This document shows positions 1 through 9,905 of a stretch of DNA of 10,065 bases, one piece after another. The DNA is from Candidatus Gerdarchaeota archaeon (GTDB lineage Archaea > Asgardarchaeota > Heimdallarchaeia > JABLTI01): positions 1 through 10,065 of the forward strand of contig JAEORJ010000025.1 of the NCBI GenBank assembly GCA_016840945.1, written 5' to 3'. Each line of letters opens with the position of its first letter. Within the stretch, counting starts at the first letter, position 1. Below the pieces are notes generated by a model. That model was not told the origin of the DNA. It was given only the letters and a program-made list of their open reading frames with translations, and ran no database searches. The position numbers and the translations under genes were made by a program.

Positions 1-537
1 ATTTGTCTCTCTATGATGGGGTTAGCATTAGAACCATTGTTAAATCAACCTTTGAACAAGTTACCACTTAAAAAGGAGAAATTAGTGGCATTATATAGAC
101 AATCTTATGAAAACACCAAATCACCATTTGGTTCTGTTCGTGAAAGAATTATTACCTTCTGTATTGATTATGTTAATTACCTTCGAACCCAAATTGCTAA
201 ACGTGCTCTTGATTTTGAAATTGTTTTTCAATTGAGTGGTCCTCGTGTTCTTACTTTTTATTTGAAAGATTTTCCAGAAGTTCAAGCTTTTGTACTCGAT
301 AAAATTACTGTTCTATTAGAGAACCATAGCATTCTTTCTTCAGCTCAACAAATCAGTTACTTGACCTTATTATTGCTTGCTAAACAGTTGGAATTCTCAC
401 CAGAAATATTGGCGTTATACGAGCGACATCAAGATTTAATTGCTACTTTTATTGAAAAACACACTAAATTATTACCAGACGAAGAACTTGATATTATCAA
501 AGAAAGAGATGAAGTTTTCAATTTTTATTTAAAATAA
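1..537 (+). CDS. C-terminal part of an unrecognised paralog-family protein (copy 1, cut by window edge)
   Basis: The frame is open to the first base of the window (I-C-L-S precedes the first ATG at 13), so this is probably the C-terminal part of a longer gene and not a 174-residue protein starting at 13. The visible part aligns with the C-terminal halves of the next two + strand genes: a helical stretch, then LSGPRVLTF, a P-x-V-x-x-F core and a leucine-rich helix (about residues 72-124 counted from the ATG at 13). The matching blocks are FNGETVLLF in copy 2 and LSGATTLGF in copy 3. The residues before the first ATG also fit the paralog alignment. No catalytic motif, signal peptide or membrane span is visible. 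The function is unknown; it is probably cytosolic and mostly helical. It is the first of three same-strand paralogs, with an 86-base gap to the second. Confidence 0.8.
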   Translation: MCLSMMGLALEPLLNQPLNKLPLKKEKLVALYRQSYENTKSPFGSVRERIITFCIDYVNYLRTQIAKRALDFEIVFQLSGPRVLTFYLKDFPEVQAFVLDKITVLLENHSILSSAQQISYLTLLLLAKQLEFSPEILALYERHQDLIATFIEKHTKLLPDEELDIIKERDEVFNFYLK

Positions 538-2660: not shown

Positions 2661-3338
2661 TTAATGGTTTTTTCTTGCACTAGTTTTTCTTTCAAATGCT
2701 ATAATTACCATTAAACTGGTTGTAGTTAATCCTAATATTATGTTATTTGAAATTGATAGGTAAATAGATGGTTCGATTTCAGTATAATTATAGTCAAATA
2801 TTGCTTCACCATTTTCAATAGTCATTAAAGCCCGTGTTGAATTAAGTAAAGTTTCTTTATAATAATACATATACATCCAAAAAACATAATCTCCATCAGG
2901 AAGAGCAATGTAACCAGCTTTTTGAATGAGTAAATAACTTATAGTTGAATGGTAGGTTGTTCCTCCCGCTAAAGTAGCATCAACTTCTACTTGTTGTATG
3001 CCACCACAAATACATATGTGTTTATAGTCTAATCTTCTATTGTCAAATCTTATTGTTGTGTTTGTACCGAACATTTGATCAGGTGGGTTTGGAAAATGTA
3101 ACTCCACTGGTCCATTGGGATTATTCACAGTTGAATTTGTCATTAATATGAAAGCTGATCTATTTTCATTACTTAGACTTTCAGAATAAGACCATTGTAT
3201 GCTTGTTATCCTTACATCAATATCTAACAGCTCCCCCTTTACATTTTCATTAATAAGATTAAATGAACCAATAATTCCTAATAGCACTATCATTAAAAAT
3301 ACAAGAATAATTTTTAACTTTTGTTTCTTTAACCTCAT
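2661..3338 (-). CDS. membrane-anchored, sequon-rich extracytoplasmic protein, unknown function
   Basis: About 225 residues from ATG at 3338; a TTG start at 3347 would add three residues, but ATG is the more usual codon. Neither start has a clear ribosome binding site. The basic N-terminus (RLKKQKLK) is followed by a hydrophobic span at about residues 8-26, a signal anchor or signal peptide. A roughly 165-residue polar domain follows, then a second hydrophobic span (about 193-214) and a basic tail (ERKTSARKNH). The positive ends suggest both termini face the cytoplasm, with a looped-out outside domain. That domain has five N-x-S/T sequons (NRS, NST, NTT, NST, NYT), consistent with archaeal N-glycosylation, and a single CxC (ICICGG). 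Its alternating beta-like pattern suggests a beta-sandwich, but I recognise no family. It converges tail to tail with the preceding + strand gene. Confidence 0.75.
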   Translation of the reverse strand: MRLKKQKLKIILVFLMIVLLGIIGSFNLINENVKGELLDIDVRITSIQWSYSESLSNENRSAFILMTNSTVNNPNGPVELHFPNPPDQMFGTNTTIRFDNRRLDYKHICICGGIQQVEVDATLAGGTTYHSTISYLLIQKAGYIALPDGDYVFWMYMYYYKETLLNSTRALMTIENGEAIFDYNYTEIEPSIYLSISNNIILGLTTTSLMVIIAFERKTSARKNH

Positions 3339-3392
3339 CTTGCCCAATAATATTATGGTCTTACGATATATAATTCTTCCTTTCCGATCTAA

Positions 3393-4077: not shown

Positions 4078-5637
4078 TTAGTCTAATTGTTGACTTGGTA
4101 CATAGTGTTCAGTTCCACAATATTGGCAAAATTGATTTCCAGGTTTCTCTAGTTTTGCCCCACAACATAAACAAGTATAAGGGTGAACCGCTATTAATGA
4201 CGAGAACAAATTCAATTCTTTACCTAATTCTCTCTCAAATCGCTCAATTTTATTTGTCCAACCATAAAATCCTTCATTTTCTTTAGTAAATGTTAAAATC
4301 ATTCTTCCTAATTGTTTTTCTTGATGGTGGCTAAGGTGTAAATGTGATGTTATCTTTCCATCATGATTTCTAAATTGCTGTTGCAAAAACGTTAGTCTTC
4401 CACCTGATTGCTTCAGTAGGTCTATAGTTGGTTGCAGATTTAAAAATGAGCTGAATAGCGAACCAATACTTCTTGCAAGAACCTCTAACTCTTCTGTTCC
4501 ACATATAACATCATAAGAATGTGTTGATACATCATAGCTTTTTTGTGAAGCATTAATTTGCTCTTTATCTTTCATTTGTCCTAACTGTTCTTGCCACAGT
4601 TTATCGGCAAGTCTATCTTTACCGTCTTCCGTAGTGATTATTTCTGAAACTCCATCCCAATTTGATTCTAGTGCTGGATTAAAATCTTTTACTTCTATTA
4701 TATATTTTAAGAACCATCCTTCTTTTTCACCACATTCACATGGTTTTGATTCAAATCTCAAGCGCTCTTTATATTGGAAATTTTTTGAAATGTTAGTTAT
4801 TTGTCTATGCCCCTTCTTACATCTACCAATTGCTTTAATGTCTATACAATGGCCCTTTTCGTATTGTTCATCAAAATAAAGAGCATTAATATTTACCCAA
4901 GTTTCCTTCTTACAATTTGGACAATACCATGTTTCTGCTTTGTCTATAATATTGACCTCTTTATAATAGGTATGGACAATATATTCATTGCAAAAAGGGC
5001 ATTTTAGTTGTATACCAATATTCATTCTGTTTTTTTCTATTAGTAATACATTATATTCATATTCTGTATCTTGGTTATACTCATATGACTCTCCTTTATC
5101 ATCTAACTTTACTCCTATACTTGTTGGAGGTCCTCCTCCTTCTGTTCTGGCAATCAAATATAGGTTATCATCTGTTTTAATATTATAATTAGATAATGTT
5201 TCATTTCTATCAAGTTGCTCGCCTCTATAAATCAATATTACTGAGTTTTCAGGTTGCCTTTTCATAATAGCTGTTTTTCTAATAATATCATTAACAGTTG
5301 TTGTTGGATTAAAACTTAAATCGATAGTACATCCTCCAAGTGCTGAGACGATATGTATTACCGATTTCTTATGTGAAATCGTTAATTTTAAAGTATTACC
5401 AAATTTGGAAATATAATCAGAAAATTTCATATTATCATTATTGATATTTTTATTTCCATATATAACATCATAAAATTCATGACTTGATAATCCAAACATC
5501 GATAAAAGATGTTTAGAAGCGTTTGCTATAGTATCATTAGCAGCGCAAATTAAAGGTATCTCAGTTTCTCTTTGATTCAAGTAAGATGGTATATCTAATA
5601 CATCTTTATTTGTAATTAAATAATTAATTGTTAACAT
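4078..5637 (-). CDS. tandem ubiquitin-like domains fused to zinc-binding modules
   Basis: 519 residues, apparently cytosolic. UBL1 (about 1-90) has ubiquitin landmarks DTIxN (35-39), FSDY (72-75) and TLKL (82-85) but no di-glycine. UBL2 (93-168) aligns without gaps to all 76 residues of ubiquitin, 26 identical by hand count. It includes LSNYNI for LSDYNI, the L8/I44/V70 patch as L100/I136/I162, R72 as R164, and the terminal di-glycine at 167-168, followed by GPP. K48 and K63 are replaced by E140 and T155; K29 is kept. After a short linker come a zinc ribbon (C213-x2-C216, C239-x2-C242) and a second cysteine/histidine cluster (C264, C273, H277, C300, C302). A polar helical stretch follows (about 340-485), then a C-terminal zinc ribbon (C489-x2-C492, C504-x2-C507). 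No E1, E2, RING or deubiquitinase gene is nearby in the window. The sequence before the ATG, GGGGATTAG, is at best a weak ribosome binding site. Its role is inferred only: a ubiquitin-like adaptor, or a precursor releasing a modifier if cut after the di-glycine. Confidence 0.85.
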   Translation of the reverse strand: MLTINYLITNKDVLDIPSYLNQRETEIPLICAANDTIANASKHLLSMFGLSSHEFYDVIYGNKNINNDNMKFSDYISKFGNTLKLTISHKKSVIHIVSALGGCTIDLSFNPTTTVNDIIRKTAIMKRQPENSVILIYRGEQLDRNETLSNYNIKTDDNLYLIARTEGGGPPTSIGVKLDDKGESYEYNQDTEYEYNVLLIEKNRMNIGIQLKCPFCNEYIVHTYYKEVNIIDKAETWYCPNCKKETWVNINALYFDEQYEKGHCIDIKAIGRCKKGHRQITNISKNFQYKERLRFESKPCECGEKEGWFLKYIIEVKDFNPALESNWDGVSEIITTEDGKDRLADKLWQEQLGQMKDKEQINASQKSYDVSTHSYDVICGTEELEVLARSIGSLFSSFLNLQPTIDLLKQSGGRLTFLQQQFRNHDGKITSHLHLSHHQEKQLGRMILTFTKENEGFYGWTNKIERFERELGKELNLFSSLIAVHPYTCLCCGAKLEKPGNQFCQYCGTEHYVPSQQLD

Positions 5638-6235: not shown

Positions 6236-7285
6236 ATGATAAAAGAAGACCAAGAAGACCTCTACTGTCAAGAGGACATAGATGAGAATAGAATGTTCAT
6301 AAAAAAGGCAGAATCACTGGTAAAACCACGTGATGTAACTGGCATTAGTTTTTTCAGTGATCTAAATAGTAAAATGCCCAAGAAAATTCAGCGTGCATTT
6401 ATGAACAGTGGTAAAAAAAGAGTTCCCTACATGGGATTCATAGTCGACCCCTACTGTTTCTTCCTCTCGTATAAAATAAACAATATCCCCGCTGCTAAGG
6501 AAATGCTTCCTGAGGGATATGAATTAATAGAAACGTCATTATTTAAAGGAGATGAAAAATATCCCATGGCTATTGCAGGTGTTTTCTCTGCCCGAACTTC
6601 GGCTTTCAATGGTGTACGAGCTGAGTTCTACATTATTGCTCGAAACAAAATATCGGGTTTGATATCCTGGGTCATCGTTGATTATGAAACGAATACTAAT
6701 AGCTATGATCCCAAGAATGGGTTTAGTGGGTATTCTGCTGATCAGGCCTTATTTACAACTACACCTTTTGGTGAGTTACTGGTCGATATTAGGAATAACA
6801 AGAGTGATAAAGAATTGGCCTTATCAGTTGATATTAAAAAAGGTAAAACAATGAGATTAGATGAAAATCTATGGATTGAAGGAAATCTCTCTGTCGATTA
6901 TGGTGGTGAGGTAAAAGGTGAAACCTCAGAGTTTTTCAGTTTAATATTTGACCAAAACATGATGAAAGAAGCAGTAAAAATACCATTAGAAAATGTTGAT
7001 ATCAAGGCAAATTCCTATTTGAGTAGTATAATTGATCCGCTAAAGCCAGAAAACGCTGTTATCTTTCCATATAGCCAGCACTTCATCATCAAACAAGATT
7101 TGGGAATGAATGACCTTCAAAATCAGAAGGAATTATGTCTGCAGATGCGGTCTTTTCTCAGTACAACAGAATTCAAAACTATGTCAGCTGATGATATCAA
7201 AAAGCCATTATTAATTGGATTAGTGATTTCTTCATTGGTAAATATCGGTATAATCATAACTTTACTACTACTGCTCTTACTATAA
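6236..7285 (+). CDS. C-tail-anchored protein, possible acetoacetate-decarboxylase-like domain
   Basis: 349 residues. The start ATG at 6236 is preceded by GGTGAT (6226-6231), complementary to the archaeal 16S 3' end; an ATG at 6232 is in another frame. There is no N-terminal signal, but the last 26 residues (from about 324) are a hydrophobic span ending in LLLLLLL with nothing after it. This is the layout of a tail-anchored protein with its whole domain in the cytoplasm. The soluble part has a block (about 84-150) reading INNIPAAKEMLPEGYELI, then KYPMAIAGVFSARTSAFNG-VRAEFYIIARN and SWVIVDYETN. This pattern resembles the acetoacetate decarboxylase / DUF2071 fold, in which a proline-rich 'LP.G' segment precedes paired strands. 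I cannot identify the catalytic lysine pair, so an enzyme role is not supported. It stands alone on its strand, 387 bases before the glycosyltransferase. Confidence 0.8.
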   Translation: MIKEDQEDLYCQEDIDENRMFIKKAESLVKPRDVTGISFFSDLNSKMPKKIQRAFMNSGKKRVPYMGFIVDPYCFFLSYKINNIPAAKEMLPEGYELIETSLFKGDEKYPMAIAGVFSARTSAFNGVRAEFYIIARNKISGLISWVIVDYETNTNSYDPKNGFSGYSADQALFTTTPFGELLVDIRNNKSDKELALSVDIKKGKTMRLDENLWIEGNLSVDYGGEVKGETSEFFSLIFDQNMMKEAVKIPLENVDIKANSYLSSIIDPLKPENAVIFPYSQHFIIKQDLGMNDLQNQKELCLQMRSFLSTTEFKTMSADDIKKPLLIGLVISSLVNIGIIITLLLLLLL

Positions 7286-7440: not shown

Positions 7441-7658
7441 AAAGCAAAACCACATGTTAAAAAATGATCAGAATGTATGGGCTAAAAATTAAGATAGACT
7501 ATTATTCATTTAATGAACCGACAAAAACCTTGCAGAAACGATAACATAACCATTGTTCCTCTTTGCTTAAATCATACGTGGTACCTTTAATCAATTAGAT
7601 GAAAATTATACTGACATGAAAAGCTGAATTGTAAAAATAGTGTTAATAATTATTGCCA

Positions 7659-7664
7659 GAGGTG
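7659..7664 (+). promoter_or_regulatory. ribosome binding site deciding the glycosyltransferase start
   Basis: GAGGTG lies 8 bases before ATG 7673 and matches the archaeal anti-Shine-Dalgarno. The upstream in-frame GTG at 7640 has no such site and would place this motif inside the coding sequence, so ATG 7673 is preferred. Confidence 0.65.
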
Positions 7665-7672
7665 CAACACTT

Positions 7673-9193
7673 ATGGTTTTTGAGGAGCTAAGCCAATTAT
7701 TCAATAATAACCCTACGTTATATTCTACACTTTACTGGATAGCTTATATTTTTGCAATGGTATCAGTTTTAAGTATAATTATTGCCCTTTTTTGGTATTC
7801 AATAGCAAGAAGGAAATTTTCTTCACCCAATCCCAAAAAAAAGATATCAGCTGTTAGTCTGGTAATAATTTTAATTGTGATTTTAATTGTTGTCCAATTA
7901 ATGCTAGCACTTTTCAAAGAAGATCTCTTGTATATAGTCTCCTTCATTATATTGATGATTTCATTAGCTCTTTTAGGTTTTAAAACTATCACCAATATTT
8001 TCCTCTCAATTATCTATAGAGGTAAACAAAAAAGAACTGAGTATAATCCTTTGGTTTCTCTTGTAGTACCTGCCTATAATGAAGCGAAGGTGATTGAAAA
8101 AACCATTACTTCTCTCTTACAGCTTACCTATACACCAAAAGAAATAATTGTTGTTGATGATGGTTCCAAAGATGATACCCTTAAAATAATAAGAAAAATT
8201 GCTAGAAAAGCACCTATTAAAGTGATATCTAAAATTAATGGTGGGAAATGGAGCGCCTTGAACAAAGGTGTCGAGGAAGCAAAGGGGGAAATAATAGTTT
8301 GTATAGATGCCGATACTATTCTAGGAGAAAAGGCTATCGAATATTTGATCCCCTATTTTACTGATAAACAAATCGCAGCAGTAGCTGGAAATATAAAAGT
8401 AGAGAATAGAGGAAAAATGATCACGAAATTACAAGCACTTGAGTATGTAATGGATATTAATCTTCAAAGGAGAAGTGAAGCAACTTTTGGGAGAATAACA
8501 ATTGTCCCAGGACCATTAGGCGCGTTTAGAAAGGCAGTTATAGAAGAAGTGGGGATGTATTCGGGAGATACTTTTGCAGAAGATGCTGATTTAACTATAA
8601 GTATTTTAAAGGCCGGCTATAAAATAAAATATGCCAGGGAAGCAATAGGGTATACTGAAGCACCAACCACTATGCTAGATTTAGGTAAACAACGGTATCG
8701 TTGGTATAGAGGGCAGATCCAAGTGATGAAAAAACATGCTAAGGATTTATTTTTATTTCCTAGGATCTTTTTCAATGAGGTCATTCTCTCTTGGCTTTCC
8801 ATCTTCATTTTTCTGTGGTTATTTGTGTTAATGTTAAATCCCTTGTCCGTGTTTGCTTTATACCAAGCAACAGATGTACCACCTGGTCATGCTGGACCAC
8901 TACTATCTAAAGCGATAGCTGAAACATCTCAATTTCAAGGAATGCTGATAATTTACATAATTTGTTTCTTAGTTGTCTTGCTTCTAGAACTAATTGTCAC
9001 AATGTATGCCATAATGATAGATACAAAAGAAAAACCAAGATTAGCATTGAATCTTCTCATCTACAAATTCTTTTTCTTGAATCTAATCAACATTATTAGA
9101 GTGCTAAGCCAATTAGAAGAATTACTTAATTATCCTATGAAATGGGAAGTCACTCAAAGAAGTGGCACATTTTCAGGGCAATCAGCACAATAA
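7673..9193 (+). CDS. membrane family 2 glycosyltransferase, processive polysaccharide synthase type
   Basis: 506 residues from ATG 7673. Three N-terminal membrane spans (about 25-45, 61-80, 85-104) precede a cytoplasmic GT-A domain (about 127-345), then three more spans (about 371-396, 423-447, 457-478). The catalytic set is complete: VVPAYNE (131-137), VDDGS (161-165) for the nucleotide, NGGK-x-x-ALNKG (189-199), DAD (212-214) for metal and UDP-sugar, AED (302-304) with the likely catalytic base D304, and QRYRW (340-344), the QxxRW motif of processive synthases. Family knowledge places such proteins with hyaluronan, PNAG (PgaC/IcaA) and cellulose synthases, which add sugars and export the chain through the membrane helices. 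Sugar and product cannot be told from sequence. There are no partner genes (deacetylase, c-di-GMP regulator, exporter) here. The hydrophobic loop between the first two C-terminal spans (about 397-422) is longer than usual. It converges with the methyltransferase-like gene across 70 bases. Confidence 0.9.
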   Translation: MVFEELSQLFNNNPTLYSTLYWIAYIFAMVSVLSIIIALFWYSIARRKFSSPNPKKKISAVSLVIILIVILIVVQLMLALFKEDLLYIVSFIILMISLALLGFKTITNIFLSIIYRGKQKRTEYNPLVSLVVPAYNEAKVIEKTITSLLQLTYTPKEIIVVDDGSKDDTLKIIRKIARKAPIKVISKINGGKWSALNKGVEEAKGEIIVCIDADTILGEKAIEYLIPYFTDKQIAAVAGNIKVENRGKMITKLQALEYVMDINLQRRSEATFGRITIVPGPLGAFRKAVIEEVGMYSGDTFAEDADLTISILKAGYKIKYAREAIGYTEAPTTMLDLGKQRYRWYRGQIQVMKKHAKDLFLFPRIFFNEVILSWLSIFIFLWLFVLMLNPLSVFALYQATDVPPGHAGPLLSKAIAETSQFQGMLIIYIICFLVVLLLELIVTMYAIMIDTKEKPRLALNLLIYKFFFLNLINIIRVLSQLEELLNYPMKWEVTQRSGTFSGQSAQ

Positions 9194-9263: not shown

Positions 9264-9905
9264 TTATTTCTTAGCGAAGAGATAAAAAACCGCCGTAATT
9301 TTAGGTTTATAGGGATCTTTAGAAGGAGATTTGGTAAGTGAAGTATCGATCATTTCTTGGGTCATCTCGAGACCATTAGATAATTTGAAGTAGTTCTGCA
9401 AATTACTTTCTGAAAAATTAAAGCTCTTACTCGCTTTATTATAGACTGCTATGAATTGAAAATAATTATCAACGAAGGCCGTTCGAGCATCATAGTGTTC
9501 ATCATTAACTAAAAAAAGTGCTCCTTTCTTCAGATAGTTCTTACAGGCTTGTGAAATTAATCCAGCATTTAATGATATCAACAAGTCAAAAGATGCAGTT
9601 GGCTCATCAATACTACTCCGATAATCAGTGAAAAGGAACTTGATGTTTGCTTCCTGCTCATAGATCTTATTTTCTTGAACAAAAGCCAACACATCCTTGT
9701 CGTGAAAGAATTGCTTGATCTTTTTGAAATTATCGACATACACAACTCGAGGGTAAAAGAGTGAGGGAGTAATATGGCAATACGAACCGGGATAAAGCAC
9801 ATTTTGAGGGTGATAGTTAGTATTGATTAGTTCAAAAATTGGCAAATAATAATCGGATAAGCCATTATACTCTTTGCTATAGATTTCCAAGTAATTGGGA
9901 GTCAT
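9264..9905 (-). CDS. Rossmann-fold, class I methyltransferase-like protein
   Basis: 213 residues. The start at 9905 is supported by GAGGTA six bases upstream. The strand-loop pattern fits a class I SAM-dependent methyltransferase: NVLYPGSYCHITPS (35-48) in the place of motif I, VVYVDNF (54-60) with the acidic residue D58 at the end of the second strand, IKFLFTDYRS (88-97), FDLLISLNAG (106-115) as the fourth strand, and ALFLVNDEHYDA (129-140). The usual GxGxG of motif I is replaced by YPGSYxH, so SAM binding is inferred from the overall pattern and is not certain. A K/R-rich tail ends in FYLFAKK. No substrate can be suggested. A short T tract on the transcribed sense lies just after the stop (complement of 9255-9260) and may end transcription. 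Confidence 0.75.
   Translation of the reverse strand: MTPNYLEIYSKEYNGLSDYYLPIFELINTNYHPQNVLYPGSYCHITPSLFYPRVVYVDNFKKIKQFFHDKDVLAFVQENKIYEQEANIKFLFTDYRSSIDEPTASFDLLISLNAGLISQACKNYLKKGALFLVNDEHYDARTAFVDNYFQFIAVYNKASKSFNFSESNLQNYFKLSNGLEMTQEMIDTSLTKSPSKDPYKPKITAVFYLFAKK

What the first reader, a model, noticed from the sequence alone, without database searches (positions are those of the whole stretch)
4078..5637. Ubiquitin with an intact di-glycine buried inside a multi-zinc-ribbon protein
UBL2 aligns without a gap to all 76 residues of ubiquitin (26 identical by hand) and keeps the hydrophobic patch, the LSxYNI turn, R72 and the terminal GG. It is followed by about 350 residues of zinc-binding and helical sequence. 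Free ubiquitin needs an exposed GG, so there are two readings. It may be a precursor cut after G168, which would release a UBL1-UBL2 modifier and a zinc-ribbon protein, much as eukaryotic ubiquitin is made fused to the zinc-ribbon ribosomal protein eS31. Or it may be a permanent adaptor in which ubiquitin-like domains act in cis with zinc ribbons. The tail TEGG in place of LRGG would matter for E1 recognition.
Basis: partly seen in the sequence, partly recalled or inferred. Interest (0 to 1): 0.78.

Follow-up and report, generated by a model that had tools for sequence, protein, structure and literature searches.

The report
Archaeal ubiquitin fused to zinc ribbons
A DNA piece from an Asgard archaeon, the microbial group closest to complex cells, encodes a protein in which a ubiquitin with its intact tail sits in front of zinc-binding-like domains, perhaps as a precursor that is cut to release ubiquitin, as our own cells do with ribosomal proteins.

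Summary
In detail: a 519-aa gene on the MINUS strand (4078-5637) carries a ubiquitin domain at residues 93-168 (PF00240, 2.6e-12; 26/76 ungapped identities to human ubiquitin) ending TEGG, followed by ~350 residues with three Cys clusters. The gene and its neighbours point to an Asgard archaeon of unsettled class. The 30 best matches among 227 Asgard genomes all carry RT(E/K/T)GG within four residues of their end (23 RTEGG), and 20 of 30 lie beside E1-, E2- or JAB-like genes; so TEGG is an ordinary Asgard tail. The fusion is the unusual part: the 85 ubiquitin matches have open frames of 41-167 residues, and protein searches returned only the query. Four other Asgard proteins, in loci I chose, with a UBL followed by >=50 residues have no GG. 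That, the EGG|GPP junction, JAB-family genes in 14 of 14 chosen genomes and published cleavage of archaeal ubiquitin fusions favour a cleaved precursor (about 0.5) over a permanent adaptor. Against: no ortholog, no host genome, no usable fold model, and the top-scoring ubiquitins lie beside LarB/LarE rather than E1/E2. UBL1 is only weakly supported as beta-grasp.

The parts
4078..5637 (-). 519-aa ORF: UBL1 - ubiquitin (UBL2) - three Cys clusters
   Evidence: in-frame TAG immediately before ATG
5362..5637 (-). UBL1, residues 1-92, possible beta-grasp domain without GG tail
   Evidence: weak: one of three profiles scores above all 1000 shuffles; no Pfam ubiquitin match
5134..5361 (-). UBL2, residues 93-168, ubiquitin domain ending ARTEGG
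   Evidence: PF00240 2.6e-12; 38-49% identity to 18 standalone Asgard ubiquitins, R72 T73 G75 G76 invariant in 19 of 19 rows
5131..5139 (-). junction G167-G168 | G169 (followed by PP); predicted cleavage point after G168
   Evidence: sequence; published archaeal Rpn11 cleavage after GG (PMC5654768, PMC6043591; passages, section 13)
4912..5001 (-). Cys cluster 1, CxxC...CxxC, residues 213-242
   Evidence: sub-threshold Pfam zinc-binding matches
4732..4848 (-). Cys/His cluster 2, residues 264-302
   Evidence: Cys/His pattern only
4117..4173 (-). Cys cluster 3, residues 489-507 (CLCC...CQYC)
   Evidence: sub-threshold DZR and Zn_Ribbon_1; ribbon-level matches in Asgard genomes

Best explanation
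The gene encodes a ubiquitin precursor. A JAB/Rpn11-type protease of the host cuts after G168 in the EGG|GPP junction, releasing a GG-ended modifier (ubiquitin with UBL1 in front of it) and a separate Cys-rich protein of about 350 residues. The modifier then enters the host's E1-E2 pathway. Shown: the ORF, the ubiquitin homology, the Asgard-type tail and the Cys clusters. Inferred: cleavage, conjugation, the presence of the enzymes in this host, zinc binding, the fold of UBL1 and any role of the Cys-rich part.
For: UBL2 belongs with Asgard ubiquitins: among the 30 best matches 20 lie within about 1.5 kb of an E1- (17), E2- (15) or JAB-like (3) ORF. Its last six residues are identical in 3 of 18 compared relatives and differ by one or two in the other 15, while the core is only 24-32 of 70 identical. 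Four of 4 distinct Asgard proteins seen with a UBL followed by >=50 residues lack GG at its end. E2 (PF00179) and JAB (PF01398) families are present in 14 of 14 chosen Asgard genomes. Caldiarchaeum Rpn11 cuts a 9-residue extension and a linear ubiquitin-GFP fusion, and uncut pro-ubiquitin is refractory to E1 (PMC5654768, passages). A Gly just after the site (C79G) speeds cleavage, and a 3-residue linker removes the block by a folded partner (PMC6043591, passages and section 13); here G169 follows and 44 residues separate G168 from C213.
Against: No ortholog, so no conservation test of the junction. The window holds no E1, E2 or JAB gene (Pfam, 8 proteins) and no host genome is held; the 14 genomes are my choice, not the host, and JAMM active-site residues were not checked. 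The eight best-scoring standalone matches (L025-L032) have no E1, E2 or JAB ORF in the fetched flanks; seven of them lie beside LarB/LarE. Pro at the second and third places after the cut was not among the mutants I read of; Trp at the second (G80W) and Glu at the first (C79E) blocked cleavage. The fusion could be recent, so that GG has merely not yet been lost. Relatives make ubiquitin from separate genes, so a precursor is not needed.
Confidence: 0.5

Rival explanations
1. Permanent adaptor: the protein stays whole. UBL2 is read in cis by ubiquitin-binding partners, and the Cys clusters hold a client or nucleic acid, as Rad23-type UBL shuttles do in eukaryotes (recalled).
For: UBLs fused to other domains occur in Asgard genomes: HEAT-UBL (L082), UBL-GerE-type helix-turn-helix (L084), ThiF-UBL (L133). 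The hydrophobic patch positions are kept. One ORF with no processing enzyme nearby.
Against: The four Asgard proteins with >=50 residues after the UBL lack GG, as expected without selection for it; here ARTEGG is complete.
Confidence: 0.33
2. Recent or chance gene fusion with little function: a diverged ubiquitin paralog became joined to an orphan Cys-rich ORF, or the join is an assembly error.
For: Singleton: the two protein searches returned only the query (one search scored only the 7998 candidates sharing most words), although the neighbour gene has 87-88% identical relatives on other contigs.
Against: 519 codons open in one frame; GC3 0.15, 0.16 and 0.21 and AGA/AGG for arginine 1/1, 5/5 and 10/12 across UBL1, UBL2 and C-terminal part, so no sign of a seam, though UBL1 has a single arginine.
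Confidence: 0.17

Closest known systems
Standalone Asgard ubiquitin (RTEGG type)
   Same: Same domain, same tail, 38-49% identity.
   Different: The 30 fetched have 0-4 residues after GG; here about 350 residues follow and 92 precede.
Caldiarchaeum pro-ubiquitin (PMC5654768, PMC6043591; passages and one section)
   Same: Ubiquitin encoded as a precursor with residues after GG, cut by Rpn11.
   Different: Its extension is 9 residues, not a multi-domain protein.
Eukaryotic ubiquitin-eS31, ubiquitin-eL40 and ubiquitin-zf-AN1 fusions (PMC8122580, passages)
   Same: Ubiquitin with GG ahead of another protein; zf-AN1 is a zinc-finger domain, and eS31 and eL40 are zinc-binding (the latter recalled).
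   Different: No Pfam match to eS31, eL40 or zf-AN1 in the C-terminal part; ubiquitin is internal, with UBL1 in front.
Tandem UBL modifiers (ISG15, FAT10; recalled)
   Same: Two UBLs in a row with GG at the end of the second.
   Different: UBL1 weakly supported; GG is internal.
Prokaryotic UBLs lodged in multidomain proteins of conflict systems (PMC7159879, passages)
   Same: UBL inside a larger architecture, proposed to be released by a JAB peptidase.
   Different: Those are fused to E2 or EAD1 domains with E1, E3 and JAB genes alongside; none such here and no PADLOC match.

Membership tests
Ubiquitin family (PF00240) | Profile match above the curated cut-off | tested here: met
   46.8 bits vs 25.4, residues 97-164
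Ubiquitin family (PF00240) | Di-glycine after R72 | tested here: met
   R72 T73 E74 G75 G76; R72, T73, G75, G76 in 19 of 19 rows
Ubiquitin family (PF00240) | Beta-grasp fold | tested here: inconclusive
   single-sequence models unusable, pLDDT 32 and 38; fold inferred from homology
Ubiquitin family (PF00240) | Free GG carboxyl end in the mature form | not testable with these tools
   needs cleavage; not seen from sequence
Archaeal E1-E2-JAB ubiquitin operon | E1, E2 or JAB gene next to ubiquitin | tested here: not met
   no such Pfam match among 8 window proteins; present in 20 of 30 best relatives' loci
Ubiquitin-eS31 / ubiquitin-eL40 | Ribosomal protein domain (PF01599, PF01020) after ubiquitin | tested here: not met
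   no match listed at E up to 1 (whole protein) or 10 (C-terminal part); HMMER's filters drop most matches above about 0.1
Tandem UBL modifiers (ISG15-like) | First domain also beta-grasp | tested here: inconclusive
   one of three profiles scores above all 1000 shuffles, with 10.3 bits
Uncleaved UBL adaptors | No intact GG at the end of the UBL | tested here: not met
   ARTEGG complete; 4 of 4 Asgard proteins with >=50 residues after a UBL lack GG
Anti-phage UBL systems | Match to a PADLOC model | tested here: not met
   0 families for 5 window proteins

The most novel reading that the evidence does not exclude
An Asgard archaeon makes ubiquitin the eukaryotic way: as the cleavable head of a zinc-binding protein, and as a two-domain (ISG15-like) modifier. 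Ubiquitin precursor fusions to zinc proteins, described so far from eukaryotes, would then also have arisen in archaea, at least by convergence.
Probability: 0.3. Interest if true: 0.75.

Novelty: new variant of a known kind. Interest (0 to 1): 0.52.

Why it matters
A 2021 review states that eS31 and eL40 are in no case apparently made as ubiquitin-like fusions in archaea (PMC8122580, passages), and the archaeal ubiquitin precursor studied in the lab has a nine-residue tail. An archaeal ubiquitin with intact GG ahead of a large Cys-rich protein would show that the precursor-fusion strategy is older or easier to evolve than thought, and it gives a simple substrate to test how Asgard JAMM proteases process fusions.

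Tried and rejected
Orthologs: two searches of the 5.8-billion-protein set returned only the query; one search scored only the 7998 candidates sharing most words. Genome and viral contig scans with patterns from P0001 confirmed nothing; a viral scan with the Asgard ubiquitin alignment confirmed nothing; tblastn on phage records found nothing. So no sign of a viral origin in those collections. C-terminal part in 227 Asgard genomes: 64 genomes matched at E 0.1 or better, best E 1.3e-4; the alignments looked at (7 sequences above the inclusion line) are zinc-ribbon-level or short.

UBL1 in 227 genomes: 14 genomes at E 0.1 or better, best E 0.0038, judged chance. Structure: both AlphaFold2 jobs gave unusable models, so no fold search was run.

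Host as a Lokiarchaeon: first suggested by the neighbour gene at 6236-7285, then weakened, because none of seven Loki genomes matched UBL2 with P0001 as query (its one match was in the C-terminal part), the six Loki ubiquitins fetched have an ATQAGG tail, and the 1-2659 paralogs matched other genomes. On the other side the gene at 9264-9905 does match three of those seven Loki genomes (G001, G002, G006), and the 6236-7285 gene was not found in 18 genomes picked near the paralogs' matches. The class stays open. A tree did not place UBL2 (end branch 1.23, no starred set).

Terminal repeats or a mobile-element boundary round the gene: only short imperfect repeats. RNA families and tRNAs: none at the thresholds used.

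Full report
What is there. The gene runs on the minus strand, 4078-5637, 519 aa. The start is fixed by a TAG codon directly before the ATG. Residues 93-168 are a ubiquitin domain: PF00240 at 2.6e-12, above the curated cut-off; ungapped alignment with solved ubiquitins to the GG; 26 of 76 identities with human ubiquitin. Positions 8, 44 and 70 are L, I, I; R72 and GG are kept; R42 is I, and of the ubiquitin lysines only K29 is kept. After the GG come GPP, then Cys/His clusters at 213-242, 264-302 and 489-507. Pfam zinc-ribbon matches are all below cut-off.

UBL1. Residues 1-92 have no Pfam ubiquitin match. Against three profiles built here, UBL1 scored 10.3 bits (0 of 1000 shuffles as high) with an Asgard UBL family whose members end in STAG or similar, 4.7 bits (3 of 1000) with a mixed profile, and -2.0 (403 of 1000) with the RTEGG ubiquitins. 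A beta-grasp fold is plausible, not shown.

Which organism. No host genome is held. The gene at 6236-7285 has relatives in Lokiarchaeota records (14 of 23 loci), spirochaete records (8 of 23) and one labelled Klebsiella. The paralogs at 1-2659 match 11 of 227 Asgard genomes; the gene at 9264-9905 matches 19 of 227, mostly other ones. Arginine codon use differs strongly between the genes of the contig. I call the host an Asgard archaeon of unsettled class.

UBL2 among Asgard ubiquitins. The whole protein against 227 Asgard genomes gave 88 matches in 85 genomes; 85 of the matches, in 83 genomes, cover UBL2, the other three lie in the C-terminal part. The 30 best UBL2 matches were fetched (L025-L054): all carry GG with 0-4 residues after it, 23 RTEGG, 5 RTKGG, 2 RTTGG. 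In an alignment of UBL2 with 18 standalone ubiquitins R72, T73, G75 and G76 never vary, and identity to UBL2 is 38-49%. Weaker family members differ: six fetched Loki ubiquitins end ATQAGG, and the best PF00240 match of genome G087 ends SIAG plus eight residues, without GG. Of the 30 loci, 20 have an E1-, E2- or JAB-like ORF within about 1.5 kb (17, 15 and 3 loci), 7 have LarB and LarE, 3 neither. The eight top-scoring loci, L025-L032, are not among the 20; seven of them are the LarB/LarE ones. So UBL2 belongs to the family of conjugation-type ubiquitins, with the caveat that its best-scoring relatives have another neighbourhood.

How odd the fusion is. PF00240 matches 165 of 227 Asgard genomes and none of 14 control genomes. 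The 85 UBL2 matches lie in open frames of 41-167 residues; the longest, in G077, is 81 residues between stops. The match list is cut, so I repeated the search in 44 genomes and fetched chosen long frames. In 48 loci examined (L066-L093, L129-L148; chosen by me, partly for long frames) four distinct proteins have a UBL followed by 50 or more residues: the 4221-aa frame in G155 (L080, L145), UBL plus a GerE-type helix-turn-helix (L084), ThiF plus UBL (L133), and L138. None of the four has GG at the end of the domain. The window protein has both the long extension and a complete tail. A systematic survey of all fused UBLs was not made.

Mechanism. Published work on Caldiarchaeum: pro-ubiquitin is cut by Rpn11 after GG, uncut pro-ubiquitin is refractory to E1, and a linear ubiquitin-GFP fusion is cut (PMC5654768; passages). 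Gly just after the site speeds cleavage, Glu there or Trp one further on blocks it, and a three-residue linker removes the block by a folded partner; G78A is still cut, so an intact GG is not strictly needed for cleavage (PMC6043591; passages and section 13). Here G169 follows, then two prolines (not among the mutants I read of), and 44 residues separate G168 from C213. E2 and JAB families occur in 14 of 14 Asgard genomes that I picked: nine neighbouring handles G062-G070, four with paralog matches (G018, G030, G034, G036) and G087. These are not the host, and JAMM residues were not checked. I put about 0.5 on a cleaved precursor, 0.33 on an uncleaved adaptor and 0.17 on a recent or spurious fusion.

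Tests against this reading. No ortholog was found, so neither the GG nor the GPP can be tested for conservation. The neighbour gene has 87-88% identical relatives on other contigs, yet the protein searches brought up no relative of this gene, which suggests a gene that comes and goes; where those contigs end relative to this gene is unknown. The window's other genes include no E1, E2 or JAB.

Known or new. Ubiquitin fusions to eS31, eL40 and zf-AN1 proteins are described from eukaryotes, and a review says archaea apparently do not make the ribosomal ones (PMC8122580; passages). My paper searches for Asgard or archaea with ubiquitin and zinc ribbon, UBL domain or related terms listed no title or abstract start that describes such a fusion. 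I read passages of seven papers (PMC10936438, PMC9192718, PMC6043591, PMC5654768, PMC7159879, PMC1779556, PMC8122580) and one section of one of them; most subscription papers are not held. PMC1779556 mentions a bacterial protein with an N-terminal UBL, a Mut7-C domain and a zinc ribbon, so a prokaryotic UBL with a zinc ribbon is not new as such. I rate the find a new variant of a known kind.

Noticed in passing
L104 763-2694, L105 2543-4480, L106 4273-6229 (and L025, L026, L028-L032): In some Asgard genomes the standalone RTEGG ubiquitin gene sits beside LarB and LarE (nickel-pincer cofactor and sulfur transfer; NCBIfam 295 and 298 bits for the L104 copies), in 7 of 30 loci. A sulfur-carrier link is conceivable; a paper search for LarE, ubiquitin and archaea listed 4 papers, none by title or abstract start on this.
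   Followed up: partly
L083, L085, L087, L088, L090, L129-L132, L135-L142, L144, L146, L148: A second Asgard UBL family with an FGLxPxEFHLS-like motif and an IPxSTAG-like end instead of GG, in some loci as neighbouring pairs; in L129 and L130 one copy has an N-terminal hydrophobic stretch.
   Followed up: partly
L137, L138: Asgard proteins with an N-terminal CPKC motif (read by eye) and a later STAG-type UBL (PF00240 below cut-off): zinc-like motif and UBL in the opposite order to the window protein.
   Followed up: partly
L080, L145 (G155:C1): A 4221-residue open frame with an internal UBL without GG.
   Followed up: no
L086, ORF from about 2660 (+): 205-residue open frame with an N-terminal part and a Loki-type ubiquitin ending AGG plus RMR.
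   Followed up: no
window 6236-7285: Conserved protein of unknown function in Lokiarchaeota records (62-67% identity) and spirochaete records (53-65%), suggesting lateral transfer.
   Followed up: partly
window 1-537, 624-1598, 1673-2659: Three tandem paralogs of an unnamed family found in 11 of 227 Asgard genomes, up to 9 matches in one genome.
   Followed up: partly
window 9264-9905 against 2661-3347, 4078-5637, 7640-9193: Arginine codons: no AGA/AGG in one gene, 89-90% in three others of the same contig; a patchwork of gene origins or of the contig.
   Followed up: no
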